A DNA stretch of 23,470 nucleotides, taken from assembly GCA_029834535.1 (NCBI GenBank), contig JAQMWT010000507.1, forward strand, positions 1 to 23,470. The letters run 5' to 3'. The position numbers and the translations under genes were made by a program. Shown here piece after piece: positions 1 through 17,759 of the stretch. This stretch comes from Chrysophaeum taylorii. Its lineage: Eukaryota; Sar; Pelagophyceae; Pelagomonadales; Pelagomonadaceae. The notes below the pieces were generated by a model. That model was not told the origin of the DNA. It did not search any database and saw only the letters and a program-made list of their open reading frames with translations. The first letter of the stretch is position 1. Every line of letters starts with the position of its first letter.

Positions 1-459
1 AAGGTTAAGGTCCGTGGCTTGGGCGATATTGTTCGTTGGATTGACGAGCTGAAATGCTGTGCGGTCGACGATTTAACGAAGGATGGTGAAGCCGAATCTA
101 ACAAGGCTAACCTATCATTCACTGTTTCGGTCGCAAGCCATCTTACTCAAGGCGATGCGGCTCCTGAACCTGATGCTTTGAGCTCAGTGCAGAAGGCGTC
201 TCCTTCTGCCGATAAGAAGAAGAATTCTCGTCAAGAATCGCTCGGTAACGACGATTTCGACCGACGAACTGACGAGGAGGAAAAGAAATGCCGAGAAGTT
301 ACAGAATGCGAGATTCGCCGAGGTTTGAAAGGTCCACTGGGTGCCGATCACGTATCGCAAGGTTGTGATGCTCTTCAGCGGCGCCGGAGGAAGTACTTTA
401 GGACTGCAACGAGCGAACGAGTTGTGCGGGACGTCGTTTCGAGTCGTCCTTGCTCTTGA
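1..459 (+). CDS. Open frame of unknown function upstream of the methyltransferase-like domain (partial)
   Basis: The frame is open from the window edge and stops at 457-459. Its product is charged and lysine/glutamate rich, with a stretch around RTDEEEKKCREVTECE, and I recognise no domain. It probably belongs to the retrotransposon polyprotein upstream of the methyltransferase-like domain. The true reading is likely to leave this frame near position 330-345, because the methyltransferase motif I lies one base over in another frame. The residues encoded after about 335 are therefore probably not real. A protease would be expected upstream or here, but none is visible. Confidence 0.35.
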   Translation, partial: KVKVRGLGDIVRWIDELKCCAVDDLTKDGEAESNKANLSFTVSVASHLTQGDAAPEPDALSSVQKASPSADKKKNSRQESLGNDDFDRRTDEEEKKCREVTECEIRRGLKGPLGADHVSQGCDALQRRRRKYFRTATSERVVRDVVSSRPCS

Positions 460-559
460 CTCGTCAACAGCTGCCAACAAGGTTCATCAGAAGAATTTCC
501 GAAGATACCTGTGGTCCAGCACACGCTCTGTGGACGATATGACTCGACCCTCCGGTTGA
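341..559 (+). pseudogene. N-terminal part of cytosine-C5 DNA methyltransferase-like domain (motifs I and II), out of frame
   Basis: This frame encodes VVMLFSGAGGSTLGLQRA, which matches the S-adenosylmethionine-binding motif I of C5 methyltransferases (FxGxGG). It is followed by RVVLALDSS, where D at about residue 40 fits the acidic motif II position, then AAN...KNF, the usual N-F ahead of motif IV. The rest of the domain continues in the frame of the next coding segment. The switch falls near position 495, where a single missing base after the N-F codons would restore continuity. Frame changes on both sides, at about 330-345 and 495, compensate each other. They could be mutations or assembly indels. 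Confidence 0.75.
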
Positions 560-2235
560 TCAAGGCTTATTTGCCTGAAGCGGAATGGTCATCGTCGATG
601 TGTATAGCGTCTCCGCCCTGCGTTCATTCCGCACTCTGCAACTTGACATCCAGAGATGTTGGCAAGGGTGTTACGGCCACTAACTGGACGATGAAGTTGT
701 GCAAGATGGCTGGCTTCATGATGTGGCTGATTGAACAGGAGGCGTCCATTATTTCGTATATAGCGCGCTTACACCCTTACGTGTACGTCGTCAATTTTCA
801 TGATATCACACCTACTCTGATGAGCTCTCGCGTGCGATTGTTGGTTTCCAGTCACCCACTGCACTTGCAAGAGGCTCCGAAGACATGTGTGAACATGCAA
901 CAAAAATTTGCTGCAGCTTTAGGTTATGCTCATGAACGCCACCTTCTCCAGCTGAATAATCTTGGCTCGTCCCGAGAAGCAACAGATACGGCTTACACCG
1001 TTACGCGGGTTCCTCTTCGTTTGGGACCGCATCGCTCGGACACTCAGCCTTTGACTCTCAAGATGACGGCCGAGTTGCTCACGATGCCGGTGGATCATGA
1101 TTGGGCTAGCTTGTCTAAGACAGATTCGTTCAAACATTTAGCGTCTGTCGTCCCTCCAGATACTCTTGCGATTTTAGCAGTCGATCTGCACAACTCCGTG
1201 ACCAGAGGTTTCCGCCAAAGTGGTGAAGTCCTGCCGACCGCGTTGAGCCCGACAGATCGATCCTTTGAGCAGTATTTGCGAATCTCCGACACCACCTTTC
1301 GTCACGTAGAGATTCCGCTGTTAAATACGCGCACTCGTGTCGTTAAGTGGGTGTCAAAAGATGATTTCCAGGATCCCACTAAATGGGAACCGCCCGAAGT
1401 TCCTATGCTTCCGCTTCCAACTGATGCGCCGGGGACGGCTCATGCTTTTTCTGCTGCCCCCCCCCAACAATCAAAAGTGGACGTTCCGCCGGATCCTAAA
1501 CCTGAACAGGAGCCGAAAGTAAGGAGCGAGGCGAATGTGCGCGTCAAAGGTAAAAAGATCAATAAGAGCCACCCTGAGGTGAGGTTCAAATACGAAGAAA
1601 AGTTCGATGTGCCATGGAAGGATGCGCCGCGCGATGCGGACGGTGTACCATTACCGCAGATTCCCGAGCACGTCAAGGACAATTATGCGATGAACGTCGT
1701 AATTCCGACGAAGGAAGAAGTAGAGAAGGTTGTTCGAGATCTAGGAATTCCCGACAACCCGCATCTGGATGATGATGCGAAGATGATGTTGAGCCATTGC
1801 GTGCAATGCGCGTGGGCTTTCTTTGATCCGATTATGAGACCCGTGGACTCGCCACCGGTTTCTCTACGCTTTAAAGACGCAAACCCACGACCGATCAAGA
1901 TGACGCCTTACAGGTTGACGCCAGCAAAGCTCGAGTGTCTCCGAAAGCAGATCACTGAGTGGTGTCGCGATGGAGTCATCCGACCGGCGAACTCTCCGTG
2001 GGGATTTCCTGTACTTATGCTGCCTAAGAAGGGAGCCGAGGCCGGGACGTCGAATGCTTTTCGTGCTGCCGTTGACTTGCGTCAGCTCAATGATCAGCTG
2101 GTCAATGACAGTTGGCCGAATATTCGGCAAGATGATGCTATGGCTTTTCTTGCCATGCGCCGTTGGCGGACGTGCATCGATATTCGATGGGGTTATCATA
2201 ACTTACGTTTGGACGGCGCTGCTCCCTTACCCTGA
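511..2235 (+). CDS. Retrotransposon polyprotein, 5' part: methyltransferase-like domain then Ty3/gypsy reverse transcriptase (truncated by insertion)
   Basis: Residues 1-230 continue the methyltransferase-like fold. IASPPC (residues 32-37) fits motif IV with the catalytic Pro-Cys. IEQE (74-77) sits where the ENV motif VI belongs, 40 residues later. SRVRLLV (106-112) fits motif VIII (QxRxR), and LTLKMTAELL...SVVPPDTLAILA (181-223) fits motifs IX and X. The motif IV Gln and motif VI Asn are changed, so activity is doubtful. A proline- and charge-rich linker follows (about 285-450, including a C homopolymer near 1459). RT begins at about 455: PIKMTPYRLT, SPWGFPVLMLPKKG, FRAAVDLRQLND and motif A CIDIRWGYHNL with catalytic D557. 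The frame then runs into inserted DNA and stops. The annotated first codon is only the first possible non-ATG start; the real frame enters from upstream. Confidence 0.85.
   Translation: MVQHTLCGRYDSTLRLIKAYLPEAEWSSSMCIASPPCVHSALCNLTSRDVGKGVTATNWTMKLCKMAGFMMWLIEQEASIISYIARLHPYVYVVNFHDITPTLMSSRVRLLVSSHPLHLQEAPKTCVNMQQKFAAALGYAHERHLLQLNNLGSSREATDTAYTVTRVPLRLGPHRSDTQPLTLKMTAELLTMPVDHDWASLSKTDSFKHLASVVPPDTLAILAVDLHNSVTRGFRQSGEVLPTALSPTDRSFEQYLRISDTTFRHVEIPLLNTRTRVVKWVSKDDFQDPTKWEPPEVPMLPLPTDAPGTAHAFSAAPPQQSKVDVPPDPKPEQEPKVRSEANVRVKGKKINKSHPEVRFKYEEKFDVPWKDAPRDADGVPLPQIPEHVKDNYAMNVVIPTKEEVEKVVRDLGIPDNPHLDDDAKMMLSHCVQCAWAFFDPIMRPVDSPPVSLRFKDANPRPIKMTPYRLTPAKLECLRKQITEWCRDGVIRPANSPWGFPVLMLPKKGAEAGTSNAFRAAVDLRQLNDQLVNDSWPNIRQDDAMAFLAMRRWRTCIDIRWGYHNLRLDGAAPLP
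2211..2224 (+). repeat. Target-site duplication, left copy (14 bp)
   Basis: GGACGGCGCTGCTC here and GGACGCCGCTGCTC at 2590-2603 flank the insertion and differ at one base. They mark where the non-LTR type insertion entered the gypsy RT. Confidence 0.8.
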
Positions 2236-2589
2236 TCGCCGACTGTGGTTGCGATGGAGGACGGTGCCTCATTAATCCGGAGCCTTGCGAGGGCATCCGC
2301 CCTCCCGGCGTAGGTTGGCACCTATTCGCCTCCCGGGCGGGCCGGTTGGCAGCCGGAACGTTCGCAGTGGGACGGGGTATGGCCGGGGGGCGAAGACGGA
2401 AGGTTATCGACGAGTTGGTTGTCAGTCACATCGTGGTCTCCTCGTCGCATGGCGACAAGCTTGATGGTCACTCTCCGCCGACCGACCTTTCGGCGCTCCT
2501 CGTCTACAGGCCCGTGATTCCGGACTGGCTCCTGTCGGTCCGGCCTGGCTCCCATGCTCGGGAGAGGTCTGAAGTTAGTTAGTTAGTTA
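2225..2589 (+). mobile_element. Short non-LTR type insertion (truncated LINE or SINE) with (TTAG)n tail, inside gypsy RT
   Basis: About 365 bp lie between 14 bp direct repeats and end in GTTAGTTAGTTAGTTAG, the layout of a target-primed insertion on the + strand. The last ~75 bp before the tail closely match the 3' end of the twin-primed element at 9326-9713 (shared CCTGGCTCCCATG and GGGAGAGGT blocks). The first ~290 bp are GC-rich and show no clear protein or tRNA-like promoter. It could be a 5'-truncated LINE of the same family or a SINE borrowing the LINE's 3' end. Excising 379 bp (insert plus one duplication) returns the flanking RT halves to one frame, so it inserted into an open gypsy copy. 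Confidence 0.8.
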
Positions 2590-2603
2590 GGACGCCGCTG
2601 CTC
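2590..2603 (+). repeat. Target-site duplication, right copy (14 bp)
   Basis: Matches 2211-2224 at 13 of 14 positions. The first G may instead belong to the TTAG tail. Confidence 0.75.
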
Positions 2604-2617
2604 AGGACGCTGTTACT

Positions 2618-5614
2618 ATGGTTAGTCCACTTGGAGCCCATAGTTTCTTGCGCTTGCATCTAGGAGTAAAAACAGCAGAAGCTCTCTTTTGTAAGCAGAT
2701 GGCTAGCGATTTGTCCACATGGATGTATAAGGACTTGGTCGCGTTTGTCGACGATATTATGATGGGATCGGATGAACTCCATCGACATTTACAAGTTTTG
2801 ATTGAAGTGTTGTGCCATTTAGTACAGCGAAGATATAGTGGACGAACTTCGAAGTTCCACCTCCTCAAGGATGAAATCGAGTTTTTGGGACATATTTCGA
2901 CTCCGGAGGGCTTGAAGCCGAATCCCAAGACGTTAGCAGCGTTGCAGCAGATGCCGATTCCCGGTACGTTGCCCAACACGTCCCCGAAGACCCAGATTCG
3001 ATCTTTCATTGGTATGAGCAACTATTGCCGCCGATATGTGAAGAATTATTCGAAGATTGTGGAGCCGCTTAGGCGATTGTGTCTTGAAGGCGTTAAGTTT
3101 GAGTGGACGCCTGAGTGCCAAAAGGCATGGGACACGATCATCGAAGCTTTGGTGGATTCTCGTGGAGTTTATCATCCTGACTACGATCTTCCTTTTCAGA
3201 TCCGCTCGGATGCTTCCAAGGATGGTCTGGGTGCGTATCTTTTTCAGCTCGTGGAAATCAAGGACGAAACCGGCAAGGTGACACGAGAGGAACGAGTAAT
3301 TGAGTATTGGAGCCGAGCTGTGCCGAAAGAGATGCGGAACTATGAGCCTCGCCGGCTAGAGCTACTGGCAGTTATTCTTTCTCTTGAGCATTTCCGCTCT
3401 TATATTGAAGGTCACAAGACGATCCTTGAAACAGATCATCGCAACTTGACGTTTTTACGAAAGGCGAAGCACTCGTCTGGGCAGTTGGCTCGATGGGCGA
3501 TGCGGCTCGCCAATTTTGATCCTGAATTGGGTTACAAGCCAGGGAAGTCGCCGGGAATGAGCATCCCTGACTGTCTCTCTCGCAATCCTATAGATCATGT
3601 CATCGAGACGGACGAGTTTGGTGAACCCTTGAACCACGCGTATCTAGTGTGCCAAGAACTCCCTCGTTCTGTTGATGATGAAGGAGTACCTTTACCTGGG
3701 TGCCATGTCATTCTGTCGTTTGTTACGACTGAGTTGCCTGTGGAGGAAGAGGAGGAAGACCTCGATGATCCGATGCAATTGGTCACGTCTCATGCTACGA
3801 AACAACGTCAGAAGCAACGACTTCAGACCCAGCCTAGTATTTTCCGTGATGCCGATGATTACCAAGAGTACATCGACAAGATTCCGGATAATTTGACTTT
3901 GGAAGAGATAGCCAAAGAGCAGATCACTGATGCTACTTGCGAGGACATTCGTTATCGCATGGCTCAGGGCCATTCTCTTCGTCGGTACGGAGCCAATTAT
4001 CGCTATCAAGTGGTGAAAGGAGTTCTCTACCGTGCCGCACCCGACTTGCACCCGATGATAGTCGCACCCCGAACTTTACGGACGCGCATCATCCGATTGT
4101 ACCATGACACACCTCTCAATGGTGGTCATATGGGTCGTCAAAGTACAGTGCAGTCGATACTTGAACGTTTTTGGTGGCCCCATATGTCTAATGAGGTGGG
4201 TGCTTACATTGCTGGTTGCATAGTGTGCAAGAAAGCTCGTACGCCTGAACCAAAGAGAGCAGGTCTGCTTCAGCAACCGGTGTATGATGGTGATTGTGTC
4301 GTCCTTTGTATGGATTTGTTTGGACCTTTGCCCAGTGCTGGTCCCGAGACATATCTCATCGTCTTTTTTGATCCATTTTCTCATTTCTTGATTCTTGACG
4401 TACTACACCATAAGACTGCTGAGTCAATCCTCGAGTCTTTTGTCGCGAATATATTACTCAAAGGTTATCTACCTCAGAGGATTCGTACCGACAATGGGAA
4501 AGAGTTCGTCAACAAGTTGATGGAAGAGTTTTGTCATCTTTTCAATGTTCGGTATAGTACCACGATTCCGTATCATGCTCAGGCTAATCCTGCGGAAAGG
4601 GTCAACCGCTTTATCAAGGCTTTCCTCCGTGCGTGCCTTCAAAACCGCAAGATCACGGAATGGCCCGAATTCGCGGAGTACATTGCTTTCTGTTACAATC
4701 GTAAATTTATTCCGGGGACTCAGATCTCACCTTTCATGCTTCGTCTTAACCGGCAGCCTTTATTGCCAACCGATTACACGATCATGGATCTTGATGTCCG
4801 CCGCCTGCCGAAAACTCGCTCCGATGTTGTGGCAGAGACTCGCGAGAGGCTGAAGTTCTATACCGCTACGGTGAACGAAGCTCGTGAGAAGGCTCTTCGT
4901 AAACAACGTCTCGCCTATAATGCGGACCATGTTGATGTGGAGTATGAAGAAGGTTCACATGTTCTGCTCTACATCCCTTTTCTTCAGAACAAGCTTCGAC
5001 CGGAATGGCGCGGTCCATTCGTTATTTTGGAACGCTTGTCCCCGGTCACTTACAGGATTGAGTCTCTTGATTATCCTCCCGAACGCCGTTGTGTTCATGT
5101 TAGTCAGATTACCCCTGTGATGGTTTCTCCAGTGGTCGATCGAGCTGTGCCCAAGCCCAAGGAGACCTTTCGGGATGATTACAAGCATGGTAAGTTCGTT
5201 ATCTTTCGGATTCCGGATAATAAACGGTCCGATTGGCGAAAGAAGATTTATGTCGCTGAAGTTTATGAACCCTATGATTTTGTGAATGATCGAGTCGCTC
5301 TGCATTTCTATGCTGATCTCGGTCCCCATGACAAGGTTTCTTATTACAAGCCTACTTCACATCTCTCTACTCGCAAGCTTAAGCCGGAATACAAGGACGT
5401 GGACGGTCGCAGTTTCACCGACAAGACCAAGGTCAACAACAGTACCACTCCTTGTGTCACCGACTTCGCTCCGCATGAGATCGATGTGTTGATTCCTAAG
5501 TTCACTTTGCGTGGTGGACGCGTTCCTGAACCTGTCGTTGAACGTGCCTACAAGAAGATTCGTTCTCGAGATGCTCATTCAGCCAAGGCTCGTGCTTCTC
5601 GCCGGACTCGCTGA
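2618..5614 (+). CDS. Retrotransposon polyprotein, 3' part: RT catalytic core, RNase H, integrase, C-terminal extension
   Basis: An intact 998-residue frame. FVDD (43-46) is the RT catalytic box. RNase H residues are D198, E248, D273 and D318, the last in IPDCLSR. The integrase zinc-binding region has H495, H504, C534 and C537, and its core has D566 (CMDLFG), D625 (RTDNGKEF) and E660 (NPAERVNR), 35 residues after D625. A GPF module lies at about 780-815. About 150 further residues include GKFVIFRIP...YVAEVYEPY...VALHFYAD (858-900), possibly a chromatin-reader-like fold, and a basic end. The functions are reverse transcription and integration of the element's cDNA. The true frame continues from 2604 directly after the upstream insertion, so the GTG start here is not biological. 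Confidence 0.93.
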   Translation: MVSPLGAHSFLRLHLGVKTAEALFCKQMASDLSTWMYKDLVAFVDDIMMGSDELHRHLQVLIEVLCHLVQRRYSGRTSKFHLLKDEIEFLGHISTPEGLKPNPKTLAALQQMPIPGTLPNTSPKTQIRSFIGMSNYCRRYVKNYSKIVEPLRRLCLEGVKFEWTPECQKAWDTIIEALVDSRGVYHPDYDLPFQIRSDASKDGLGAYLFQLVEIKDETGKVTREERVIEYWSRAVPKEMRNYEPRRLELLAVILSLEHFRSYIEGHKTILETDHRNLTFLRKAKHSSGQLARWAMRLANFDPELGYKPGKSPGMSIPDCLSRNPIDHVIETDEFGEPLNHAYLVCQELPRSVDDEGVPLPGCHVILSFVTTELPVEEEEEDLDDPMQLVTSHATKQRQKQRLQTQPSIFRDADDYQEYIDKIPDNLTLEEIAKEQITDATCEDIRYRMAQGHSLRRYGANYRYQVVKGVLYRAAPDLHPMIVAPRTLRTRIIRLYHDTPLNGGHMGRQSTVQSILERFWWPHMSNEVGAYIAGCIVCKKARTPEPKRAGLLQQPVYDGDCVVLCMDLFGPLPSAGPETYLIVFFDPFSHFLILDVLHHKTAESILESFVANILLKGYLPQRIRTDNGKEFVNKLMEEFCHLFNVRYSTTIPYHAQANPAERVNRFIKAFLRACLQNRKITEWPEFAEYIAFCYNRKFIPGTQISPFMLRLNRQPLLPTDYTIMDLDVRRLPKTRSDVVAETRERLKFYTATVNEAREKALRKQRLAYNADHVDVEYEEGSHVLLYIPFLQNKLRPEWRGPFVILERLSPVTYRIESLDYPPERRCVHVSQITPVMVSPVVDRAVPKPKETFRDDYKHGKFVIFRIPDNKRSDWRKKIYVAEVYEPYDFVNDRVALHFYADLGPHDKVSYYKPTSHLSTRKLKPEYKDVDGRSFTDKTKVNNSTTPCVTDFAPHEIDVLIPKFTLRGGRVPEPVVERAYKKIRSRDAHSAKARASRRTR

Positions 5615-5626
5615 GGGCAGCTCGTG

Positions 5627-5644
5627 TTCTCACCAGGGGAGTCC
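5627..5644 (+). promoter_or_regulatory. Polypurine-like tract before 3' LTR
   Basis: The AGGGGAG-containing stretch just after the polyprotein stop and immediately before the LTR start is where plus-strand DNA priming is expected. It is short and not purely purine. Confidence 0.45.
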
Positions 5645-5971
5645 TGTGGCGGCAACTCCTGACCGCTAAGGCTTACCCCCCCTCTCTCGAGGCTTGATAC
5701 CCGTTCAACGGGACACCTTTCCCGATCTTCTTAGTGACATCATACCTCTCTCTTGTGAGAAGCATTCTTGCTGTATTCTTGTAGTTTCCTTGCTATCATA
5801 TTCCATCTCTCCATCTTGTTGAGAGGCTTGGTGAGCGTGAGCAAGGTGTGTGGCGAGCTTATCCGACCCCGCGTCCGTGTTTTCCTCGTTCAGTGAGGTC
5901 TAGGACGAGTCGGTGAGTACCCCGTTGTCACCCGGGGGTCGAGAAGGTTTTTTTTTTTCTGTGCCGCCATA
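5645..5971 (+). repeat. 3' LTR of the gypsy element (327 bp)
   Basis: It starts TGTGGCGGCA and ends TGCCGCCATA, an inverted pair with one mismatch (the usual final CA appears as TA). The first part (TGTGGCGGCAACT, CTAAGGCTTACCCC, GACATCAT) resembles the 337 bp LTR at 17263-17599 on the other strand, and the two are of similar length. It contains a T homopolymer near 5948. The 5' LTR is outside the window, so the boundary rests on the inverted ends and on similarity to the second LTR. Confidence 0.7.
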
Positions 5972-6576
5972 GAATGTACGAGTGGACGTACCCAAAATAT
6001 TCCATAACATGTGTGCAAGAGTGCAGGTTAGCCAACTTACACACACATCAACATTGACACGACAATACGATACTATGAACAGGTGCACACAAGGTTACAC
6101 GATCACGTGTGCAAAGTATGCTATATACAGCCCAATGGTAATGGCGTTATATTGACAAGCGTGTCTACATGGCGAGGCTGGACCGGCGCGGTAACAGTCC
6201 AAAACCCATAGGCTACGTGCATGCTGACACATGGTTTCTCAGGGACCCGCCTGGGCCCATAACCTGCAGAGCAATTAGCATGCAGTGGTAAGTCACCTGG
6301 GAAACCATCCCGTCTCATCATGAACGTCTGGAAGTATTTCATTCGGGGAATGAAAAGGTATGTTCCCTATATCATCAGAACACGACAGGCGGCATCTAGA
6401 ACTACACGAGAAAGGTAAAGTGTATAGTGCTACATACCTCGGGACGCGCTACATGATGATGAGCTTAAGCACAAATCAGAGGACTAATTGACTGTGTAGA
6501 AAGGAAGAAGAAGGGTAAGGAAGAGATCACGTTCTCAACGGACGGATAAGGGTAAGAGGCAGCAGATTTCTCTGCA
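5972..6576. other. Spacer with no recognisable gene
   Basis: About 600 bp between the gypsy LTR and the copia RT. It is more AT-rich than its surroundings and has short CA-rich stretches. I see no convincing coding frame, RNA gene or LTR. It may include flanking DNA and the rearranged 5' side of the copia remnant. Confidence 0.5.
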
Positions 6577-7317
6577 GTGGTATTAGGTTATACCCAAGTG
6601 CATGGCGTCGATTATTTCGCAACTGATTTCCCAGTTGCTACGGCAACTACAGTAAGAGTATTTTTGTGTCGTGTCGCTCATCTCAATTGGGAACTTGTCA
6701 AACTTGATATCAAGAATGCGTTCACACAAGCTACATTTTCTGAAAATGTTTACGTTTGGCCCGCAGAGGGGTTTCCTATTCAACAACCACCATCGGGCTA
6801 TCACGTTTTGAAACTCAAACGATCATGGTATGGTACTCATCAAGCTAGTCGTAGCTGGAATATCCTCCTTCATAAGATTCTTACTGACTTCGGTTTTGCG
6901 GCAACTGACGCTGATCGCTGCTTGTATTTGTTTTACGTTCAAATGCAGGTTGTCATCATGTTGATTGTGATTGTAGATGATATGCTAGTGTCTTTTGATC
7001 GAGCTAACTCTCATCATTACCAGCGTCTTGTTGTGTTCCTTCGGACACGTGTTCATTCACCTTCTGATGTTAAAGAACTGGGTTCAGTTTCTGGCTTTAT
7101 TGGTTTTGAGATATTTCGCAACCGCCAAACGCGCACGATTCAAATACGGCAGACCAAAGCTATCAATGATCTGCTTAAGGTTGCGAGTCTGGGCCCTTCT
7201 CAAGTTGCTTCAACACCAGGACAGCCAGCTGTTCATCTGTCAGCTGATTCTTGTCCGCAAATTAAGTCTCCGGAATGGCATTATATGCAGCGTTTACCTT
7301 ATCGAGGCACTGTCTGA
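6577..7317 (+). pseudogene. Ty1/copia reverse transcriptase fragment
   Basis: The product begins in the middle of copia RT: VLGYTQVHGVDY, then LVKLDIKNAFTQ (catalytic Asp of motif A), YVWPAEGFP, LKRSWYGTHQASRSWN and IVIVDDMLVSF, where VIVDD stands for the usual YVDD. It ends at an in-frame TGA (7315-7317) inside the conserved YRGTVG...TRPD block, so the stop is premature and RNase H continues in the same frame afterwards. Gag, protease and integrase are missing upstream. The start is only the first possible codon in a 5'-truncated copy. Confidence 0.9.
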
Positions 7318-8008
7318 GTTTTACTGTTCATTGCTATTATGACGAGACCTGATTTTTTGTTTCAAGTCGTTCAAGCTTGCCGTTTTGGTAATAATCCTGG
7401 TCGCAAGCACTGGACATATGTTCGTCATATTCTGAAGTATCTGCACGGCTCACGCCACTTGTGTTTGACTATTGATGGCTCCAAATGGCAACAATTTTAT
7501 ATCTACTGTGACGCCGATTGGGCTTCAAATCCTGATTCACGCCGCTCTGTATCTGGATATGTTTACATGCTGTGTGGCTGTGCTATCGCTTCGTGTTCTT
7601 CTGTGCAACATCTGGTCGCTCGTTCTAGGTTCGAATCAGAGCTCATTTCCCTTTTTGGCTGCACTGCCTATCTGCTATGGCTTCGCCGCTTATTGACTGT
7701 TCTCGGTTTACAAACGGATCCCGTGCCATTGTACATGGACAACAAAACTGTGGTTCATCGCAAAAATAAAAAAAGAGTTCGCTATCACTAAACACACTCG
7801 TCATATAGGGATACGCTACATTTATGCAACTGACATGCTTAATGCTGGTATCATCGCTCCTGTTAAAGTCAACTCCAACTGGAATGCCTCCGATTGCCTT
7901 ACCAAGTCGAGCAAGTACGAGATATTTTTTCGGCAACGTGCCATTCTCTTGAATCTCTCTGCTGACATTCAGACACCTACGCCTGCTGCTCCTGCCCCTG
8001 CTCCTTAA
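7318..8008 (+). pseudogene. Ty1/copia RNase H and polyprotein end, frameshifted
   Basis: From 7339 the frame encodes TRPDFLFQVVQACRF, RHILKYLHGSRH, IYCDADWAS (RNase H Asp), RRSVSGYVYML, ARSRFESELISL (Glu) and YMDNKTVV (Asp), the normal copia RNase H order. Near 7762-7775, in an A-rich run, the frame shifts by one base. It continues as TKHTRHIGIRYIY and NASDCLTKSSKYE (the usual ADxLTK motif) to a stop at 8006-8008, after a Pro-Ala-rich end. Together with the upstream TGA this makes the copy non-functional. Confidence 0.88.
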
Positions 8009-9310: not shown

Positions 9311-9325
9311 ATTTAAAGACATATA
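9311..9325 (+). repeat. Target-site duplication, left copy (15 bp)
   Basis: ATTTAAAGACATATA, repeated exactly at 9714-9728, brackets the twin-primed retrotransposon insertion. Confidence 0.88.
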
Positions 9326-9713
9326 ACTAACTAACTAACTTCGGACCTCTCCCGGGCATGGGAGCCAGGCTGGGCCGGTAGTAGCCGGTCCAGGATCACA
9401 GAGCAAAAAAATCACACAGTTGGGGTAGAAGCTTGGGATGAAAGTGCATGGATGGCGGACCGCCACTGCGCGCGGTCTTGTGCGAGGTCGTGCCACGAGT
9501 TGAAGGGGATGTCGCATTTCCGGAGTGCCTTGGCGAGCGACCTCCCGTACGATCCTGCGGCGGCGCCTCGGCCTCGAGTCCATCGACGTCTACGTCACGC
9601 GCCGCCAGCTCCGCTGGGCCGGTCACGTCGCCCGCATGCCCTTCTCCCGACTCCCTCGCAAGATGCTCTCGTCTTGGGTCCGCTCCAAGCGCCCACCGGG
9701 GGCTCCGCAGATG
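9326..9713 (-). mobile_element. 5'-truncated non-LTR retrotransposon with inverted 5' segment (twin priming)
   Basis: The - strand reading ends in a (TTAG)n tail at 9326-9343. The - strand from about 9550 down to 9430 encodes YGRSLAKALRKCDIP and SWHDLAQDRAQWRSAIH, the usual last residues of LINE endonuclease/RT proteins, then a stop and a short 3' UTR. The + strand from about 9551 to 9713 encodes RRQLRWAGHVARMP...RLPRK and RPPGAPQM, which normally comes immediately before YGRSL. So the upstream half is inverted relative to the downstream half, and both meet at 9549-9551. This is the product expected when target-primed reverse transcription is primed twice. A 15 bp target duplication flanks it. 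Confidence 0.85.
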
Positions 9714-10142: not shown

Positions 10143-12164
10143 CTGAATATCGTGAGCAGCGCTCGAACCGAAGGTGGCATTAGAACTACCGTCGTCACGC
10201 GAATGATTATCTTTCCTTTGTCGGCTCTCCCATCGTCCTCGCGAGATGGGCTTTCTGCCGTCTTTGATGTATTTGCACATCGCTACATAATAGTCGTCGG
10301 GCTCGCGGTTGCAAATGACGCGGTTCCCGTGTTCGTCTTTGTCGTGGGTCGCTAAGAAAAACCCACAGTCGAAGTTCGCGCCGGCACAGACGACGCCGAT
10401 CGCGCTACGACGAATACGACGGAGGCTCTTGTTATCTTTGTCTCTCTCTGGCGTCAGTTCGGCAGGTCCTAGTACCTCTGGATCGTCCCTGTAGGCGACT
10501 GGTGCTCCCAAGTCTATCCGAACTGGCTCAATCGTCTCTTCTATCGAAATATCGACGCCTTCGTCGTCTTTTTGCCAAAACTCCGACCAAACGTAAATTA
10601 AATCTCGGTTTGCCAATAACTCCGTGCCTCGGGGTCGGAATTGTACTTCTTTCCGCTCTGGCGGTTTCTTCCTCAGGAAACATTGAGCTCGTATCCTTAT
10701 CGTCGGTACGCTCATCTTCTTATTATCCATGCTGATCGTCCCATCCAAATTCGGTTCCGGGCGGCAGCTATACTCACCCCTCATAGTATGTTCGGGATCT
10801 TTCTTTATCACGTAGCCATCATCATATGCAGGCTGAAAATCTTTGAACTCTTCGTTCGTGAGTAATACGCCAGGGCTTTCACTGAGCTCCAAAGGCAGTT
10901 CATGCGTTATAAGATTCTTCATCTCTTCCGCTTTCGTATTCATTTTCTCGGCCGTTTCACTCGGCCTCTCATCCACTCCATCGCTTCGAATATCGGCAAT
11001 CGCCTCGTCACTAAAAATGTCGGCACACGAATTGTCTGCCATCGTCAAAGGGAATAAAACATCTGCAAAAACGTCTGCAGTCGGTTCGTCGGGGGGGGCT
11101 GCAAAAGAAGGAGGCGTCGTCCCCGACGTCATATCTGTCAAAAACTGGCCACCAAAGGGCACGTGACGTTCGATGGGTGTGTACTCAGGTGCGCGCTTAT
11201 CATTCGAGGTAATCCTCTGCGACGCATCGTCGATCGATCGTGGAGGCGACGTGCCATCCACTTGAATGTTCGGAGGTAAACTCATAGCATCGAGCGTAGC
11301 AGCGGCGGGTCCCTTACTTTGGGCGTCATCGGCTGCACGGAGCTCGTAAATCGGATTCACACGTAACTCCGGCGCGTCGTCAAGACCGAGGGTTGTGTCA
11401 GCTGACGACAAATCATATCGTGCCACCAACGGTGACACCGGGTTAGAAGCGGTAGACGGCTTCGACCCGTAGTTTAACGACGTTTCGGTCAAATTCTTCG
11501 ATTCTGTGGGGATTTTGGTTTGGGTGAGCTCCTTCGACTTGGATTGCCCTTGATCGTAGTTTAACGACGTTTCGGTCATCTCGGACGACTCGTCGTCGTC
11601 GTCGCGCGGCTTCCTGACTTTCGCTCGCGTTCGCGTGGGCGGCGGTACCTCCGAAGTTCGGAATTCTCCCTCGAGACCGTTCGCTCGCCTCGGGCGATTC
11701 GGCATACGCAATTCATCTCTTTCACGTGTCAACGCGCTTGCTTGATCTTGGAGGGCGTCTGCTCGAGCATTGGCCATACGCAGTTGCTCTCGCATTATTT
11801 TTATCTCATTCCAGTGTAGCCGTTCTTTTCGTTCGTTCTCTTCCCCTATTTGTTTTAAAAGTCGTTCTTGCGCGCGTTCGTTCTCTTCGCGTAATGCCCG
11901 CAAGTGAGCTTCGTAGAACTCATTCATTTTCGTTGCATCCGGGGGTCCTGCACGCGTTGACGGAGCTGTCGATCGTCCTCCCGCCGGTCTCTCCGTGGGC
12001 TTGCCGTCGTTGTAGTTTAGCTCTTCTTCCTCGTCAACTTCTGTATCGTGCTCTTCTTCATCATCATCATTATCATCATCGTCATTCCGCTCGTTCGTCT
12101 CATCCTGACGGCTTGGCGGTTCTTCATATCGTAGCTGCTCGACGGCAGCATCATCGTCTTCCAT
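10119..12164 (-). CDS. Gag-like protein, mosaic copy A (681 aa)
   Basis: It begins with ATG at 12164. An acidic Asp/Glu-rich stretch (about 20-50) is followed by a coiled coil (about 80-150, ALREENERAQERLLKQI), both nearly identical to copy B. The middle is unlike the capsid part of copy B but distantly resembles its later acidic region (SGTTPPSF, FLRKKPPE). Residues about 600-675 (DCGFFLATHDKDEHGNR...MCKYIKDGRKP) are a Cys/His-rich segment about 94% identical in DNA to copy B. The last residues (ELAHMEG) come from antisense of the neighbouring gene fragment, so the C-terminus is chimeric. LNY-containing TETSLNY motifs repeat twice (DNA at 11468-11491 and 11555-11578). Likely a defective structural protein; capsid and protease are absent. 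Confidence 0.7.
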   Translation of the reverse strand: MEDDDAAVEQLRYEEPPSRQDETNERNDDDDNDDDEEEHDTEVDEEEELNYNDGKPTERPAGGRSTAPSTRAGPPDATKMNEFYEAHLRALREENERAQERLLKQIGEENERKERLHWNEIKIMREQLRMANARADALQDQASALTRERDELRMPNRPRRANGLEGEFRTSEVPPPTRTRAKVRKPRDDDDESSEMTETSLNYDQGQSKSKELTQTKIPTESKNLTETSLNYGSKPSTASNPVSPLVARYDLSSADTTLGLDDAPELRVNPIYELRAADDAQSKGPAAATLDAMSLPPNIQVDGTSPPRSIDDASQRITSNDKRAPEYTPIERHVPFGGQFLTDMTSGTTPPSFAAPPDEPTADVFADVLFPLTMADNSCADIFSDEAIADIRSDGVDERPSETAEKMNTKAEEMKNLITHELPLELSESPGVLLTNEEFKDFQPAYDDGYVIKKDPEHTMRGEYSCRPEPNLDGTISMDNKKMSVPTIRIRAQCFLRKKPPERKEVQFRPRGTELLANRDLIYVWSEFWQKDDEGVDISIEETIEPVRIDLGAPVAYRDDPEVLGPAELTPERDKDNKSLRRIRRSAIGVVCAGANFDCGFFLATHDKDEHGNRVICNREPDDYYVAMCKYIKDGRKPISRGRWESRQRKDNHSRDDGSSNATFGSSAAHDIQELAHMEG

Positions 12165-12243
12165 ATCGGCTCTGGCTCGTTCTAGTCGGCCGAGATCAGA
12201 GCGGGTCCAAAATAATTGAGTAATCGTCGTTCTCGTGCTCCTT
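12151..12243 (+). repeat. Inverted repeat, left arm (~93 bp)
   Basis: Gag start codon region plus adjacent leader. It is present in reverse complement at 12637-12730 with essentially one mismatch. Confidence 0.85.
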
Positions 12244-12636
12244 CGGCTCCGGAACTTCTAATCGTCCACGACACGCGTAATATCGTCGTTGCGTGCGTCT
12301 TCCACCGACAAATCTATCCGTACGGTGGGCGGCAGAACTCGTCTCTGCCCGTCAAACAATGCCTTATCCGTGAGTTGCGATCTCACTCCGCTCGCCTGCG
12401 GCAGCGGTACCCGGGTTGCGCGTCGGTTAGCACCAAATCGCGCGTCGTCACTTCCGACGACTAACGTATCCGGCCGGGGAACTTTCCCACGGCAATGGTC
12501 CTTCTGGAATTCCTTGTCGGCGCGCTTGATCAGGGCGCGCACGGCTTGTCCGGACCGTGTAGAGAATGCAAGATGCACTAGTTCGTTGCGACCGATATAG
12601 TCGCTCGAATCTCGTATTCCTCCCCACCTGTGGCGT
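12165..12636 (-). other. 5' leader of copy A with degenerate primer-binding region
   Basis: This is nearly identical to the leader of copy B (16798-17260). On the - strand it runs from the end of an LTR (CTCCTTACGCCACAGG at about 12624-12640) through a damaged primer-site equivalent, GTGGGGAGGAATACGAG, to the gag ATG at 12164. It includes the same ATG-poor open frame as copy B. The LTR itself is missing; the next DNA is an inverted copy of leader and gag start. Confidence 0.75.
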
Positions 12637-12730
12637 AAGGAGCACGAGAACGACGATGACTCAATTATTTTGGACCCGCTCTGATCTCGGCCGACTAGAA
12701 CGAGCCAGAGCCGATATGGAAGACGATGAT
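12637..12730 (-). repeat. Inverted repeat, right arm (~94 bp)
   Basis: Reverse complement of 12151-12243, about 390 bp away. It makes the last ~23 residues of the copy B polyprotein (ending SERVQNN) a chimeric antisense tail. Both sides share GGAG/CTCCTT at the left edge, a possible microhomology for template switching. Confidence 0.85.
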
Positions 12731-15700
12731 GGCACTTCTTCCGTGGCAGTAACCGCCACCCGAGCAGCGGACCGGTCGCGCTCTTCGCAAGAAGAACACA
12801 TTCCTTCGACAACTCCCAACTGCTCGTTCTCGGCAAACGTAGCGATGAAAACCTGTCCCTTTTCCATAGGTTTCGACAAAATAACCGGCAGATTGTAAGT
12901 TCGACCGGGCTCGATTTGAAGCGTGCGCGCAGCATAAGCTACTACTTCTCGTGCGTCTTCTCCCGGAGCTGGGGATAATTTGGTCGTAGCATGTCCCCGC
13001 GTAGCCAAGGCTACCTTTCGTTCCGGCGGCGGGCTTCGGAGATCTTTAATCGTGCTCAAACGAGCATAAACTCGAGTCTTGACCAGGTCGAGACTCTGCC
13101 GAAAGGCATCGTGTTGATGATTGTAAATCGGCACGGTTATCGGATTTCGATCGTAAATAGACCGAAAGGCCACGATTGGTGCATCGACCCGTTCATCCTT
13201 AACTTTAATCTTTTTGCGCCCGTAGACGACTTGGGTTCGACAAAAACAGATCCGATCATGGGGAAAATCCACGATGGCTCCTAAAACTCGTATATCGCGC
13301 CCTCCCAACAGGAACAAATAATTCGTATCGGCTACAATAGCGACAATGGGGGCAGCGAAATCGTCGGCGAAAGCGACCCGAAGGGCGATCCAACGATGGA
13401 TCGTCGTCGTATTCAACCCTGATCCGTACAGCTTGCGCTTAATCGGAAGTTCGCCTTCATCGAAAATCAACTGATCTTTGGTCAACTTTTTGACCATTTC
13501 TCGGCAAATACAAGAAACATCTGCCATTCCATCGACACCGATGGTCGTCGAGAATTTCGGTCCGTCACGATTCCTGTAGATGTGACAGGCTATAAACGTT
13601 AGAGTACCCGTATCTAAACAACTTAGGGTAATCAAATCATCTTCGATCGTCTTGCCGTCTCTCGGCGTCAACGAAGTGTGAGCACATCGGGCTCTGAATC
13701 GCTCATCTCCGGGGTTGGGCATCGATACCGCGGCTTGAGCTTTCGTATTATCTGTTGTTGGCGTCTTCGCCATAACGCTCGCGGCAGCCTCTTTATCTGG
13801 CGGCTTCCGCTCTTCCTCCAAGACAATCTCCGAGGGAATAAACGCTGGTAGGGGATCCTGGTCTTCGTAATCCTTGGAAGCAAACAACCCCTCCCATAAA
13901 TCATTCATTTCGTCGTTCCAGAATGCATCTGTGAATTCATTCGTCGCCTGCTGATCCTCATCAGCATCGGCGATCGGTTCCGTGTCAGCTGCGGCTTTGA
14001 GTCTGCAGCTGCGCGGTTGTTCTGGTGGCTTCCTTAGCAAGAAATTCCGAGCTTTCGTCCCCCAATCCTGCAGGTTCCACGTCGGCTCGTCTTCGTCCCA
14101 CTTGAGAACGCTGCTAATCTTCTTCATAAATCTATCCTTTTCTTCCGGCGGCGTATCCGTGTCTCGATCCGTAGTAATCGAAACCGTTTCGGGGGGGTCC
14201 GCAGGAAAAGATGGCGTCGTCCCTGACGTCAACTCTATCGTAAAATCGTCGTCTGCCATACTCGCGCTGGTCATCGTCTCGTCAGTCGAATGCGCGCACG
14301 AGTTATCACTGCAGAAATTCATGTCTGGCTCACAGCCAGTTCGGTCGCCGGCGGTCATCTCTGGAGGGTCCAAAGATAAGCCGATGGCATCGAGGGCTTC
14401 CTCATCAAAAATAAACGGTGGGTCGTCCGTGGACGACCCGTCAAATAACGTTAACGCGGACACTGGTTCACAAAGTGCAGCTTCTTCATCTTCCGAATCT
14501 GAATCGCCTTCCCAGTATCGTGGAGCTTCAAGTTCCTCGCTCGAATCTTCGAGCTCCTCGCTCGACATCTGCTCATAAATCTGTGCCAAAGACCGACGAT
14601 TGGTCAGCCCGTCGTTGGGTGGCTCGTCCATCGGTGGGCGAGCAAGGTCTTCGAATGCGGCCGCGGCAAGGGCGTCGGCCGCGTCGTTGGTGCGGGTGTC
14701 CGTTTTCGGGTACACCGTCACTCCTAATGGTAACTGTCGACCGCAAGGGGTCGTAAATGCGAACGTTGTAGACGACTGTCCCGAGTCTTCCCGGTAACGA
14801 CTATCGTCCGAATCGCGATCGCGAGATCTTCGTCGCCGGCGGCGGCGTGAATGTCTGCTAGAGCTCCTGCTATCTTTCCGTCGGCGCTGGCACGAGCTGC
14901 TACGGCTCTTGTCGTGGCGTCGGGGGCTCCGGCTATCTCGACGGCCCGGTCGTGTCGAAGACGATCGGCCGTGTCCATCTGTTAAGTGCTTCACGGTATC
15001 CATAACCGTGGTTAGCTGCGTGCCCATATCATTGAGTCTGCTCTGAATATCGTGAGCAGCGCTCGAACCGAGGGTGGCATTAGAACTGCCGTCGTCACGC
15101 GAGTGATTGTTGTTTCTTTGTCGGCTCTCCCATCGTCCTCGCGAAGTGGGCTTTCTGCCGTCTCTGATGTATTTGCACATCGCTACGTAATAGTCGTCGG
15201 GCTCGCGGTTGCAAATGACGCGGTTCCCGTGTTCATCCTTGTCGTGGGTCGCTAAGAAAAACCCACAGTCCTTGCACGTCCTCTCGAACCACTTTTTCGG
15301 ATTCTCTTCGAGGCGTAAGGCTTCATATTTCGTTGTTTTATCTTTCGTTCCCGAGACGAGAGCTCGTCCTCCGCGTCCAGGCGGCGGCTTCTGCGGCTTC
15401 CCGCTCGAGGGGTTCATCGAGTTTCGGCTGTTCTTCTCCGCCATGGCTGTTGCGAAGTCGTTTTCGAGCCGCGTAATCAGCGACAACGTGGACGTAAACG
15501 TCTTATACGTCGTCGGGTGTCCGCTGCGCATCGTTCGCACGCGGGATTTCAATTCGCTGGACTCCAGTCCACGTATCAAGTAAGAGATGATCTCCACGTC
15601 GTTGAGATCTCGGTTGGCCACGGAACAGTATGCCATGGCTTCTTGCTGAAATTTAATGCAATACGTATGCACGTGACGTTCTCCAGAGCGTTTCGGAACG

Positions 15701-15810
15701 GTCGCTTGGGTCGTGCATTGTAACTTTCGTAATGATTCCTCTGCCGTCACCGGCAGCGGACAACTCTCTCGGAAATATTTCAAAATCTTGAGGCAATACT
15801 TCTCGTTCAA
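12661..15810 (-). CDS. Gag-protease polyprotein, copy B downstream part (1049 codons)
   Basis: In frame with the upstream gag-like ORF and separated from it by a single TGA. It starts with a capsid-like helical region (VANRDLNDVEIISYLIRGL, about 80-150). Next come a Cys/His-rich segment (CKDCGFFLATHDKDEHGNR...CKYIRDGRKP, about 180-220), an Arg/Ser-rich basic region (about 285-340) and a long acidic region (380-700). The protease-like region (about 745-870) has TTIGVDGMADVS, where VDG stands for the retropepsin D-T/S-G, and YLFLLGGRDI, like the LLGxD motif. It breaks off before RT: from about residue 1027 the sequence is the inverted gag-start segment. The listed start is only the codon after the TGA. 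Confidence 0.75.
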   Translation of the reverse strand: MNEKYCLKILKYFRESCPLPVTAEESLRKLQCTTQATVPKRSGERHVHTYCIKFQQEAMAYCSVANRDLNDVEIISYLIRGLESSELKSRVRTMRSGHPTTYKTFTSTLSLITRLENDFATAMAEKNSRNSMNPSSGKPQKPPPGRGGRALVSGTKDKTTKYEALRLEENPKKWFERTCKDCGFFLATHDKDEHGNRVICNREPDDYYVAMCKYIRDGRKPTSRGRWESRQRNNNHSRDDGSSNATLGSSAAHDIQSRLNDMGTQLTTVMDTVKHLTDGHGRSSSTRPGRRDSRSPRRHDKSRSSSCQRRRKDSRSSSRHSRRRRRRRSRDRDSDDSRYREDSGQSSTTFAFTTPCGRQLPLGVTVYPKTDTRTNDAADALAAAAFEDLARPPMDEPPNDGLTNRRSLAQIYEQMSSEELEDSSEELEAPRYWEGDSDSEDEEAALCEPVSALTLFDGSSTDDPPFIFDEEALDAIGLSLDPPEMTAGDRTGCEPDMNFCSDNSCAHSTDETMTSASMADDDFTIELTSGTTPSFPADPPETVSITTDRDTDTPPEEKDRFMKKISSVLKWDEDEPTWNLQDWGTKARNFLLRKPPEQPRSCRLKAAADTEPIADADEDQQATNEFTDAFWNDEMNDLWEGLFASKDYEDQDPLPAFIPSEIVLEEERKPPDKEAAASVMAKTPTTDNTKAQAAVSMPNPGDERFRARCAHTSLTPRDGKTIEDDLITLSCLDTGTLTFIACHIYRNRDGPKFSTTIGVDGMADVSCICREMVKKLTKDQLIFDEGELPIKRKLYGSGLNTTTIHRWIALRVAFADDFAAPIVAIVADTNYLFLLGGRDIRVLGAIVDFPHDRICFCRTQVVYGRKKIKVKDERVDAPIVAFRSIYDRNPITVPIYNHQHDAFRQSLDLVKTRVYARLSTIKDLRSPPPERKVALATRGHATTKLSPAPGEDAREVVAYAARTLQIEPGRTYNLPVILSKPMEKGQVFIATFAENEQLGVVEGMCSSCEERDRSAARVAVTATEEVPSSSSISALARSSRPRSERVQNN

Positions 15811-16797
15811 TCATCGTATCCGTCGTACCACGGAACCGTACTCCTCATCGTCGATATCCCGACGTAAACAGAAAGACGCTGGGTGATCTAGGTCTTTACA
15901 CAGGTCTTCATACTTCTTTAAGTGTTCTCGAAAAATCGGTGCGACTGTGTCGCGCAGGGTCGCGGGAAGTAGATATCGGAGTTTCTCTAAGCTGAAATGG
16001 TCTTCTGCTAACGTACTCATCACCGCGCCCGCATCTAAATCGAACTGGTCCTGATCGCGTCCATCGAGAACCAGTTTAAAAGTTTCGGTTTTTAATCCAG
16101 AGGTTGATCGCCGCTCCTTGTTGCGATCGTGTTTAGCTAACGCGCTCGCGAGTCGATCCGTAAAACCCATCAAGAACTCCTGGGTGTCGATCTTTCCGGC
16201 GCCACGCGTCTCCTCCTTTTCTTCTTCATCATCGTCTTCATAGCGCGGCTTCCTAGCTTTCGCGCGTGATCGTGTAGTCGGCGGCTCATCCTCAGCTCGG
16301 GACTCCGGGCTGCTCGCTCGCCTTGCTCGACTCGGCGTACGCAACTCGTCTCTTTCACGGGTCCACGAGCTTACTTGCTCTTGGAGGGCGTCTGCTCGAG
16401 CGTTGGCCCGACGTAGTTGCTCTATTAGTTCTTCTTTCTCCTTCCGTTGTCGCCGTTCTTTTCGTTCGTTCTCTTCACCTATTTGTTTTAAAAGTTGTTC
16501 TTGCGCGCGTTCGTTCTCTACGCGCAATTCCTGCAAGAGAGCCTCATATAACTCTTTCATTATCGTTGGGTCCTGGGGTACTGCACGCGTTGACGGAGCT
16601 GTCGATCGTCCTCCCGTCGGTCTCTCCGTGGGCTTGCCGTCGTTGTAGTCTAGCTCTTCTTCCTCGTCAACTTCTGTATCGTGCTCTTCTTCATCATCAT
16701 CATTATCATCATCGTCATTCCGCTCGTTCGTCTCATCCTGACGGCTTGGCGGTTCTTCATATCGTAGCTGCTCGGCGGCAGCATCATCGTCTTCCAT
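15811..16797 (-). CDS. Gag-like protein N-terminal part, copy B (328 aa)
   Basis: It starts with ATG at 16797 (MEDDDAAAEQLRYEEPP). The protein has an Asp/Glu-rich acidic stretch, a coiled coil (about 85-155, rich in Glu/Arg heptads) and a basic region with TTRSRAKARKPR. A probable capsid N-terminal part follows (TQEFLMGFTDRLASALAKHD..., about 205-320). It ends at TGA (15811-15813) directly before an open frame of 1049 codons in the same register. A CGA-to-TGA transition would explain the stop; readthrough is the alternative. Retroelement gag proteins form the particle that packages element RNA; assignment here rests on position after LTR, primer site and leader. Confidence 0.75.
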   Translation of the reverse strand: MEDDDAAAEQLRYEEPPSRQDETNERNDDDDNDDDEEEHDTEVDEEEELDYNDGKPTERPTGGRSTAPSTRAVPQDPTIMKELYEALLQELRVENERAQEQLLKQIGEENERKERRQRKEKEELIEQLRRANARADALQEQVSSWTRERDELRTPSRARRASSPESRAEDEPPTTRSRAKARKPRYEDDDEEEKEETRGAGKIDTQEFLMGFTDRLASALAKHDRNKERRSTSGLKTETFKLVLDGRDQDQFDLDAGAVMSTLAEDHFSLEKLRYLLPATLRDTVAPIFREHLKKYEDLCKDLDHPASFCLRRDIDDEEYGSVVRRIR

Positions 16798-16890
16798 ATC
16801 GGCTCTGGCTCGTTCTAGTCGGCCGAGATCAGAGCGGGTCCAAAATGGTTGAGTCGTCGTCGTTCTCGTGCTCCTTCGGCTCTGGAACTT

Positions 16891-17236: not shown

Positions 17237-17237
17237 C

Positions 17238-17260
17238 TCGAATCTCGTATTCCTCCACCA
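17238..17260 (-). promoter_or_regulatory. Primer-binding site complementary to a tRNA 3' end
   Basis: On the - strand TGGTGGAGGAATACGAGATT continues to CGA. Its complement ends in CCACCA and contains TCGAATC, as in the T-arm and acceptor of a tRNA. It lies two bases after the LTR end, the normal position for the primer of minus-strand DNA synthesis. I cannot assign the amino acid. Confidence 0.78.
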
Positions 17261-17262
17261 CC

Positions 17263-17599: not shown

Positions 17600-17759
17600 C
17601 CCCCCACGGCCTCGAGGGCCGTCGCGTCTCGGGAGCCGACCACAAACGCCGTCGCACGCCGTGGAAATTCTGTCTTTTCGGTTCTTGAAGATTTCTGCGC
17701 AATTTTCCGTTCTTGGGTTAGGGTGGGTACCCTTTTCCTTGCTTTCCGTTGCGCGAAGC

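What the first reader, a model, noticed from the sequence alone, without database searches (positions are those of the whole stretch)
338..1200. Cytosine DNA methyltransferase-like domain embedded in a Ty3/gypsy polyprotein
Seen: FSGAGGSTLGL (motif I), ALD (II), NF, SPPC (IV), EQE 40 residues later (VI position), SRVRLLV (VIII) and LTLKMTAELL...VVPP (IX/X), in correct order and spacing directly upstream of gypsy RT in the same polyprotein. Known: methyltransferases have been reported in retrotransposons of a few lineages (gypsy in a charophyte alga, copia in dinoflagellates). Inference: the element could methylate its own or host DNA, perhaps to control its silencing, or the domain is now structural, given the altered motif IV and VI residues.
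Basis: partly seen in the sequence, partly recalled or inferred. Interest (0 to 1): 0.88.

Follow-up and report, generated by a model that had tools for sequence, protein, structure and literature searches.

The report
Algal retrotransposons carrying DNA-methylase domain
A jumping gene of a marine alga carries inside its own copying machinery a domain derived from cytosine-methylating enzymes, present in many copies and kept intact by selection, which suggests that the element uses it during its life cycle.

Summary
The finding holds. Window 329-1212 encodes a C5-cytosine-methyltransferase-like domain upstream of reverse transcriptase in a Ty3/gypsy polyprotein; one frame break splits it in this copy. 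The host is the pelagophyte Chrysophaeum taylorii. Unbroken copies pass Pfam's cut-off for PF00145 at motif I; a sublineage 41% identical passes it at motifs IX-X. Matches, all lower bounds: 140 with the window's domain, 151 with the divergent one. Of 54 unbroken domains all keep the catalytic Cys and 53 a Glu 38 residues on. dN/dS between two sublineages is about 0.05, near that of RT. The genome also holds a seemingly separate capture: a copia element with a different C5-MTase-like domain. Retrotransposon-borne methyltransferases are known (PMC5890265), so this is a new variant of a known kind. No CpG-decay footprint was seen, which argues against lasting CpG methylation of the copies.

The parts
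1..328 (+). linker upstream of the methyltransferase-like domain; the element is cut at its 5' side by the contig edge
   Evidence: blastn to the C235 copy, 98% over window 1-2224; the window is the whole contig C507
329..556 (+). first piece of the C5-MTase-like domain (frame 2), with motif I FSGAGG at 374-391
   Evidence: PF00145 E 1.9e-4, 21.4 bits, cut-off 22
460..1212 (+). rest of the C5-MTase-like domain in frame 1 of the open frame 460-2235 (the change of frame lies near 520-556)
   Evidence: translation of 520-1350 is 100% identical to stretches in C174, C147, C235 and C415
610..621 (+). motif IV SPPC; Cys codon 619-621
   Evidence: Cys in 54 of 54 unbroken domains
733..741 (+). motif VI position, EQE instead of ENV; Glu codon 733-735, 38 residues after the Cys
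   Evidence: Glu in 53 of 54, Gln in 54 of 54; EQE also in the 41% identical sublineage
826..837 (+). motif VIII SRVR
   Evidence: both Arg in 54 of 54
1051..1158 (+). motifs IX and X (LTLKMTAELL ... SVVPP)
   Evidence: opposite IX and X in the low-stringency whole-length alignments; PF00145 260-321 in the divergent sublineage, 22.7 bits
1213..2225 (+). linker and N-terminal half of reverse transcriptase
   Evidence: open frame 460-2235, no Pfam match on its own; the homologous stretch of the C5 copy matches RVT_1, 47.1 bits
2226..2590 (+). repeat (GC 0.63) inserted into the RT of this copy; edges approximate
   Evidence: gap between the blocks aligned to two other copies; window 2310-2590 recurs, reversed, in the C235 copy
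2591..5614 (+). rest of RT, RNase H, integrase (H2C2, rve, p58_C)
   Evidence: PF17917 94.6 bits, PF17921 63.1, PF00665 47.1, PF22938 30.9, RVT_1 25.2 (below its cut-off of 29.6)
5646..5953 (+). 3' LTR (start taken from the TGTGGCGGCAAC end seen in the C5 copy; end approximate)
   Evidence: 5698-5953 is 95.3% identical to the first 257 bases of the C235 stretch; that those are its 5' LTR is inferred

Best explanation
A Ty3/gypsy LTR retrotransposon lineage of Chrysophaeum taylorii took up a C5-cytosine-methyltransferase domain, placed it in Pol upstream of RT, and has kept it since before three sublineages parted. Shown: homology, place, copy number, conservation of Cys, Glu, Arg and of motifs I and IX-X, purifying selection between two sublineages. 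Inferred: the domain is made with RT in the Gag-Pol particle, binds S-adenosylmethionine, and attacks cytosines with the PPC cysteine, the EQE glutamate standing in for ENV. Inferred too: its substrate is the element's own nucleic acid in or leaving the particle (nascent cDNA or RNA:DNA hybrid), marking or shielding the incoming copy rather than keeping chromosomal copies methylated for long.
For: PF00145 above cut-off in two unbroken copies (25.9, 27.4 bits) and at motifs IX-X in the divergent sublineage (22.7 bits); one copy, C260, matches both ends of PF00145 in one open frame, 35.1 bits together, and is 95% identical to the divergent domain. Domain, RT, RNase H and integrase lie in one open frame of 3063 codons at C5, between 341-bp repeats 98.2% identical. 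Cys 54/54, Glu 53/54, both Arg 54/54; all these are invariant in the four-row alignment with the 41% identical copy. dN/dS between two sublineages is 0.054 for the domain (720 pairs; 13 with saturated dS not in the dS mean), against 0.033 for the RT N-half, 0.099 for the putative protease region, 0.18 and 0.21 for the neighbouring linkers. A copia-type element of the same genome carries its own C5-MTase-like domain, as expected if such a domain helps retrotransposition here. Precedent: SymbioDIRS-Dnmt3 domains methylate CG in yeast (PMC5890265).
Against: Motif IV lacks the usual Gln (PCV), motif VI is EQE, the stretch from that Glu to motif VIII is 32 residues against 41 in 46 of 83 references (32 of the 83 gave no match to the motif pattern). 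No fold was obtained. Homology of the back half is not significant by profile comparison for the window's own type. Chromosomal copies show no CpG loss (observed/expected 1.16 and 1.28) and no raised CpG transition rate (ratio 1.05 and 1.02), so any CpG methylation is not lasting or does not decay. The gypsy DNMT of Klebsormidium gave no methylation in yeast, which its authors call inconclusive.
Confidence: 0.5

Rival explanations
1. The domain is a catalytically dead relative kept for binding nucleic acid or for the architecture of Pol (spacer, processivity, particle assembly).
For: PCQ changed to PCV, ENV to EQE, shortened stretch before motif VIII, 296 residues in all; no CpG footprint.
Against: The Cys, the Glu at the right spacing and both motif VIII Arg stay in 53-54 of 54 domains and in the 41% identical copy; the V-VIII third has the lowest ratio within the domain (0.044, with 131 of 900 pairs saturated).
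Confidence: 0.27
2. The domain is an RNA methyltransferase of Dnmt2 style, acting on the tRNA primer or the genomic RNA beside RT.
For: The best, though not significant, matches among solved structures are Dnmt2/TRDMT1 (E 0.08; 0.52); up to E 10 the only other C5-MTase listed is one bacterial entry at 1.7. LTR elements are primed by tRNA (general knowledge, not tested here). No CpG footprint.
Against: The CFT motif invariant in the 20 Dnmt2 aligned is in none of the 54 domains nor in the divergent piece; only motif I drives those matches; the Pfam, TIGR and PHROG matches are general.
Confidence: 0.13
3. The domain methylates CG of host or element chromosomes to steer silencing, as discussed for Symbiodinium.
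For: Precedent in PMC5890265; the genome has six matches to the methyl-CpG-binding domain and two other C5-MTase genes found here, a Dnmt2 and L002.
Against: No CpG depletion and no CpG transition excess in 29 and 30 sampled copies of two sublineages. Synonymous sites gave no consistent excess: in the window's sublineage the rate before G was above that before A and T but below that before C, in the sister sublineage it was low.
Confidence: 0.08
4. Chance similarity, assembly chimera or a one-off insertion.
For: The window copy is broken and lies at a contig edge.
Against: 140 matches on many contigs, 115 of them without a stop inside (hand count), LTR-bounded copy, selection.
Confidence: 0.02

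Closest known systems
KnitGypsy-Dnmt3 of Klebsormidium nitens (de Mendoza et al. 2018, PMC5890265)
   Same: Gypsy LTR element with a C5-MTase domain in the Pol polyprotein, several copies, purifying selection (Ka/Ks below 0.2 there)
   Different: Streptophyte host; domain assigned to Dnmt3 with the key residues kept; fewer copies than in Symbiodinium by the authors' words. Here: stramenopile host, changed motifs IV and VI, class not assigned, hundreds of matches
SymbioDIRS-Dnmt3 and SymbioLINE-Dnmt of Symbiodinium (same paper)
   Same: Hundreds of C5-MTase domains carried by retrotransposons in one algal genome; the DIRS form shares an ORF with RT
   Different: DIRS and LINE classes, not LTR gypsy or copia; SymbioDIRS domains shown active in yeast
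DNMT3 members in LTR Copia and DIRS elements (one sentence in PMC12344493, passage read)
   Same: C5-MTase in a copia element, like the second family found here
   Different: The sentence refers to streptophytes and dinoflagellates; the word pelagophyte does not occur in that paper
Dnmt2/TRDMT1
   Same: Profile match over motifs I-IV and best, non-significant, match among solved structures
   Different: No CFT motif, PCV and EQE instead of PCQ and ENV, fused to gypsy Pol
m6A RNA demethylase in orchid Ty3/gypsy (PMC9289625, search listing only)
   Same: Gypsy element that took up a nucleic-acid-modifying enzyme domain
   Different: Demethylase of RNA, another enzyme

Membership tests
Ty3/gypsy LTR retrotransposon | RT, RNase H, then integrase in one Pol | tested here: met
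Ty3/gypsy LTR retrotransposon | long terminal repeats | tested here: met
   C5 copy: 341 bp, 98.2%; the window holds only the 3' one
Ty3/gypsy LTR retrotransposon | Gag and aspartic protease | tested here: inconclusive
   no significant Pfam match in the 1307 residues before the domain in the C5 piece; protease (GVDGMADVS) and a capsid-like stretch in the C235 copy are readings by eye
C5-cytosine methyltransferase (PF00145) | match above Pfam's cut-off | tested here: met
   27.4 and 25.9 bits in two unbroken copies, 22.7 in the divergent sublineage; window piece 21.4, just below
C5-cytosine methyltransferase (PF00145) | motif IV Pro-Cys nucleophile | tested here: met
   Cys 54 of 54; Pro before it 53 of 54
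C5-cytosine methyltransferase (PF00145) | motif VI ENV | tested here: inconclusive
   EQE at the usual spacing; Glu kept 53 of 54, Asn replaced by Gln
C5-cytosine methyltransferase (PF00145) | motif VIII QxRxR | tested here: inconclusive
   both Arg 54 of 54, first Gln absent
C5-cytosine methyltransferase (PF00145) | Rossmann-type MTase fold | not testable with these tools
C5-cytosine methyltransferase (PF00145) | methyl transfer to cytosine | not testable with these tools
   needs an assay
Dnmt2 | CFT motif | tested here: not met
   invariant in the 20 Dnmt2 aligned, in 0 of 54 domains and not in the divergent piece
Dnmt3 (as in KnitGypsy-Dnmt3) | clusters with Dnmt3 in a tree | not tested
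   too diverged and no Dnmt3 set fetched

The most novel reading that the evidence does not exclude
In one alga two unrelated LTR retrotransposon superfamilies each captured a C5-MTase domain on their own, and the gypsy one has become a methyltransferase with an EQE active site that works on the reverse-transcription complex itself (RNA:DNA hybrid, nascent cDNA or tRNA primer) rather than on chromosomal CpG.
Probability: 0.2. Interest if true: 0.9.

Novelty: new variant of a known kind. Interest (0 to 1): 0.7.

Why it matters
Retrotransposons are often silenced by cytosine methylation, so elements that carry and keep their own methyltransferase are a paradox. This would be a further, stramenopile lineage, with what look like two separate captures in one small genome, which argues that the trait is favoured rather than an accident. 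Nanopore and PacBio data of this alga were made for its genome paper, so whether the copies are methylated could be asked without new sequencing if those raw data can be had.

Tried and rejected
My own reading of VVNF as motif VI (and so of a lost Glu; note) was dropped after the spacing test. Searches for relatives elsewhere found none: 8000 scored candidates and 2213 candidates drawn from 5.8 billion proteins at E 0.001, and viral contigs for both domains; Chrysophaeum's own polyproteins did not appear either, so those nulls are weak. A CpT transition excess in whole copies was not seen at synonymous sites. A tree for the origin was not attempted: only about 100 columns align safely. Perkinsus as host was a wrong guess; the host was named by its Dnmt2 gene.

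Papers: PMC5890265 read in parts 1, 3, 4 of 7 and by passages; PMC9998398, PMC12477816, PMC12344493, PMC3145265, PMC10366177 by passages; the others as search listings only. That elements of this kind in Chrysophaeum or other pelagophytes are not in print rests on ten searches of the held library (most listings show only the best rows) and on zero occurrences of retrotransposon, transposable and repeat in the main text of PMC10366177; subscription papers and preprints are not covered.

Full report
What is there. The window is a whole contig (C507) of a 70.8 Mb, 697-contig eukaryotic assembly. A Dnmt2 gene of that assembly is 100% identical to a protein of Chrysophaeum taylorii, a pelagophyte, on a contig of the same length, 102313; its genome paper reports 71 Mb on 702 contigs (PMC10366177, passages). 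Window 1-5953 is a 5'-cut Ty3/gypsy element. Frame pieces: motif I piece 329-556 (frame 2), then 460-2235 (frame 1) through the rest of the C5-MTase-like domain into RT; a repeat at 2226-2590; then 2591-5614 with RT end, RNase H, H2C2, integrase core and C-terminal domain.

Is the domain real. The motif I piece alone matches PF00145 at E 1.9e-4; the 591-residue frame-1 piece has no match to it. Unbroken domains from the C5 and C235 copies pass the cut-off with 25.9 and 27.4 bits against 22, over profile 2-52; the C5 domain matches PHROG methyltransferase families at E 8.3e-7 and 1.9e-6, and TIGR00675 at 0.0011, far below that model's cut-off. hhalign of nine copies against 20 Dnmt2 proteins: probability 96.6 over columns 12-101, ending just after SPPC. 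Shuffling: for the front half 0 of 200 and 0 of 150 reach the score. Back half: 50 of 200 and 56 of 150; V-VIII 22 of 150; motifs IX-X 10 of 200 and 4 of 150. With a divergent copy added: against Dnmt2 53, 51 and 15 of 150 for back half, V-VIII and IX-X; against 93 C5-MTases (83 bacterial and viral, 10 eukaryotic) 10, 0 and 6 of 150. These are many tests, so the profile support for the back half is mixed.

The divergent sublineage supports the back end. A gypsy locus in C137 (L157), picked from the integrase list, carries the same domain at 41-42% identity. It keeps SPPC, EQE, SRTR and LTLQM and reads LGSMVPP at motif X, close to the GN.VPP that I recall as usual. It matches PF00145 at positions 260-321, 22.7 bits, as a 266-residue piece (in the 1257-residue frame the same stretch scores 17.6, below the cut-off of 22). 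A relative in C260 matches both 7-48 and 260-321 in one open frame, 35.1 bits together. Front and back of the family profile thus appear in order and at fitting distance.

Catalytic residues. Of 60 loci examined (30 brought by each of two searches, best matches first; one is the window itself), 54 had the whole domain in one frame without a stop and were counted; 6 were dropped for that reason, the window among them. Cys 54/54, Glu of EQE 53/54, Gln 54/54, second Glu 52/54, both Arg of motif VIII 54/54, motif I Gly at three positions 54/54. Cys to Glu is 38 residues, as in 69 of the 83 bacterial and viral frames used for comparison, which were fetched with a Dnmt2 alignment and chosen for holding PPC and ENV or ENI; Glu to Arg is 32 against 41 in 46 of those 83, the motif pattern not being found in 32 of them. 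M.HhaI as a yardstick (Cys 81, Glu 119) is recalled.

Copies. Protein search with window:520-1350: 140 matches (140 of 959 candidates scored), 77-100% identity, in open frames up to 3067 codons, 25 with stops inside by hand count. DNA search: 43 matches, 91-100% identity. With the sister domain: 132 (of 1007 candidates), overlapping. With the divergent domain: 151 matches (144 of 847 candidates scored), some being two pieces of one copy. By the tool's own statement such counts are lower bounds. The C5 copy has one open frame of 3063 codons: a putative protease by eye near residue 1049, the domain at 1432-1727, RT, RNase H, integrase, between 341-bp repeats 98.2% identical, so a fairly young insertion.

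Selection. Between the two sublineages, mean dN over mean dS (Nei-Gojobori) is 0.054 for the domain (24 by 30 copies), 0.067, 0.044 and 0.062 for its three parts, 0.033 for the RT N-half, 0.099 for the putative protease region, 0.18 and 0.21 for the linkers. Mean dS is 0.8 to 2.6; saturated pairs drop out of the dS mean (13 of 720 for the domain, 131 of 900 for V-VIII, 862 of 900 for the last part, 178 of 286 for the protease region), and only unbroken segments were used, so the values are rough. The ranking (RT, then domain, then protease region, then linkers) is the point. Within sublineages the domain gives 0.17.

A second family. L043 in C96 has an open frame of 1952 codons with a C5-MTase-like domain (PF00145 32.1 bits; FTLPCQ and ENV), a weak integrase match (rve 17.2 bits, below its cut-off) and a copia-type RT (RVT_2, 133.2 bits); the 578-codon frame before it has no significant Pfam match. 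A related copy reaches 46.3 bits for PF00145. 152 matches in the genome. Among seven copies the ratio is 0.09-0.16 for the 19 of 21 pairs with dS above 0.4, and 0.25 and 0.33 for the two close pairs; one of the seven has ENA for ENV. The two domains do not align with each other (hhalign probability 0.6), while each aligns with Dnmt2 (probability 96.6; 71.3). I read this as two captures; a very deep common origin is not excluded.

How it may work. Best reading: a retained methyltransferase acting in the reverse-transcription particle on the element's own nucleic acid. Homology, place and selection are shown; enzyme activity, substrate and purpose are inferred. Against lasting CpG methylation of resident copies: CpG observed/expected is 1.16 and 1.28 in the sampled loci of two sublineages (29 and 30 loci, flanks included), 1.26 and 1.46 in two host loci, and CpG transitions are not raised. 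The authors of the 2018 paper discuss cDNA methylation, RNA methylation for the LINE form, and slowing of transposition (PMC5890265). The structural rival stays strong because of PCV and EQE and because no fold was obtained.

Place among known things. Retrotransposon-borne C5-MTases are known in Symbiodinium (LINE, DIRS) and Klebsormidium (gypsy) and mentioned for Copia and DIRS. New here, as far as the ten paper searches show: a stramenopile host, gypsy and copia in one genome, a gypsy domain with altered motifs IV and VI yet fixed residues, and hundreds of matches in 71 Mb.

Noticed in passing
L043 (G000:C96:59000-68999), 4943-5818: Second, seemingly unrelated C5-MTase-like domain in a Ty1/copia-type element (LPCQ and ENV kept), 152 matches in the genome, purifying selection.
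   Followed up: yes
L157 (G000:C137:26000-32000): Divergent gypsy sublineage with the same domain at 41-42% identity; in this copy one stop follows motif I.
   Followed up: yes
window 10411-12642 and 12731-17603, minus strand: Two partial copies of the sister gypsy sublineage; one ends about 340 bases before where the domain would start, the other in the N-terminal part, so neither shows domain or RT.
   Followed up: partly
window 2226-2590 and 9324-9399: Repeat (GC 0.63) that interrupts RT here and lies in the opposite orientation in the C235 copy; by eye its translation also recurs in a frame before Pol in L157.
   Followed up: partly
L041 against L039 and window 15811-16890: By eye, the N-terminal region differs: the C5 copy lacks the capsid-like stretch seen in the C235 copy and on the window's minus strand, and has another stretch instead.
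   Followed up: no
window 6556-7791: Copia-type RT fragment (RVT_2, 104.7 bits for 6556-7314), GC 0.44.
   Followed up: no
G000 C498, C93, C36, C145, C200: Six matches to the methyl-CpG-binding domain PF01429, two of them in open frames of 1342 and 1721 codons on C498.
   Followed up: no
window 22973-23470: Direct repeats of 34-65 bp, GC-rich, at spacings 172, 193 and 76.
   Followed up: no
window 17850-22300: GC-rich (0.64) stretch with overlapping long open frames and no Pfam match at E 0.01 in the five translated pieces tested.
   Followed up: partly
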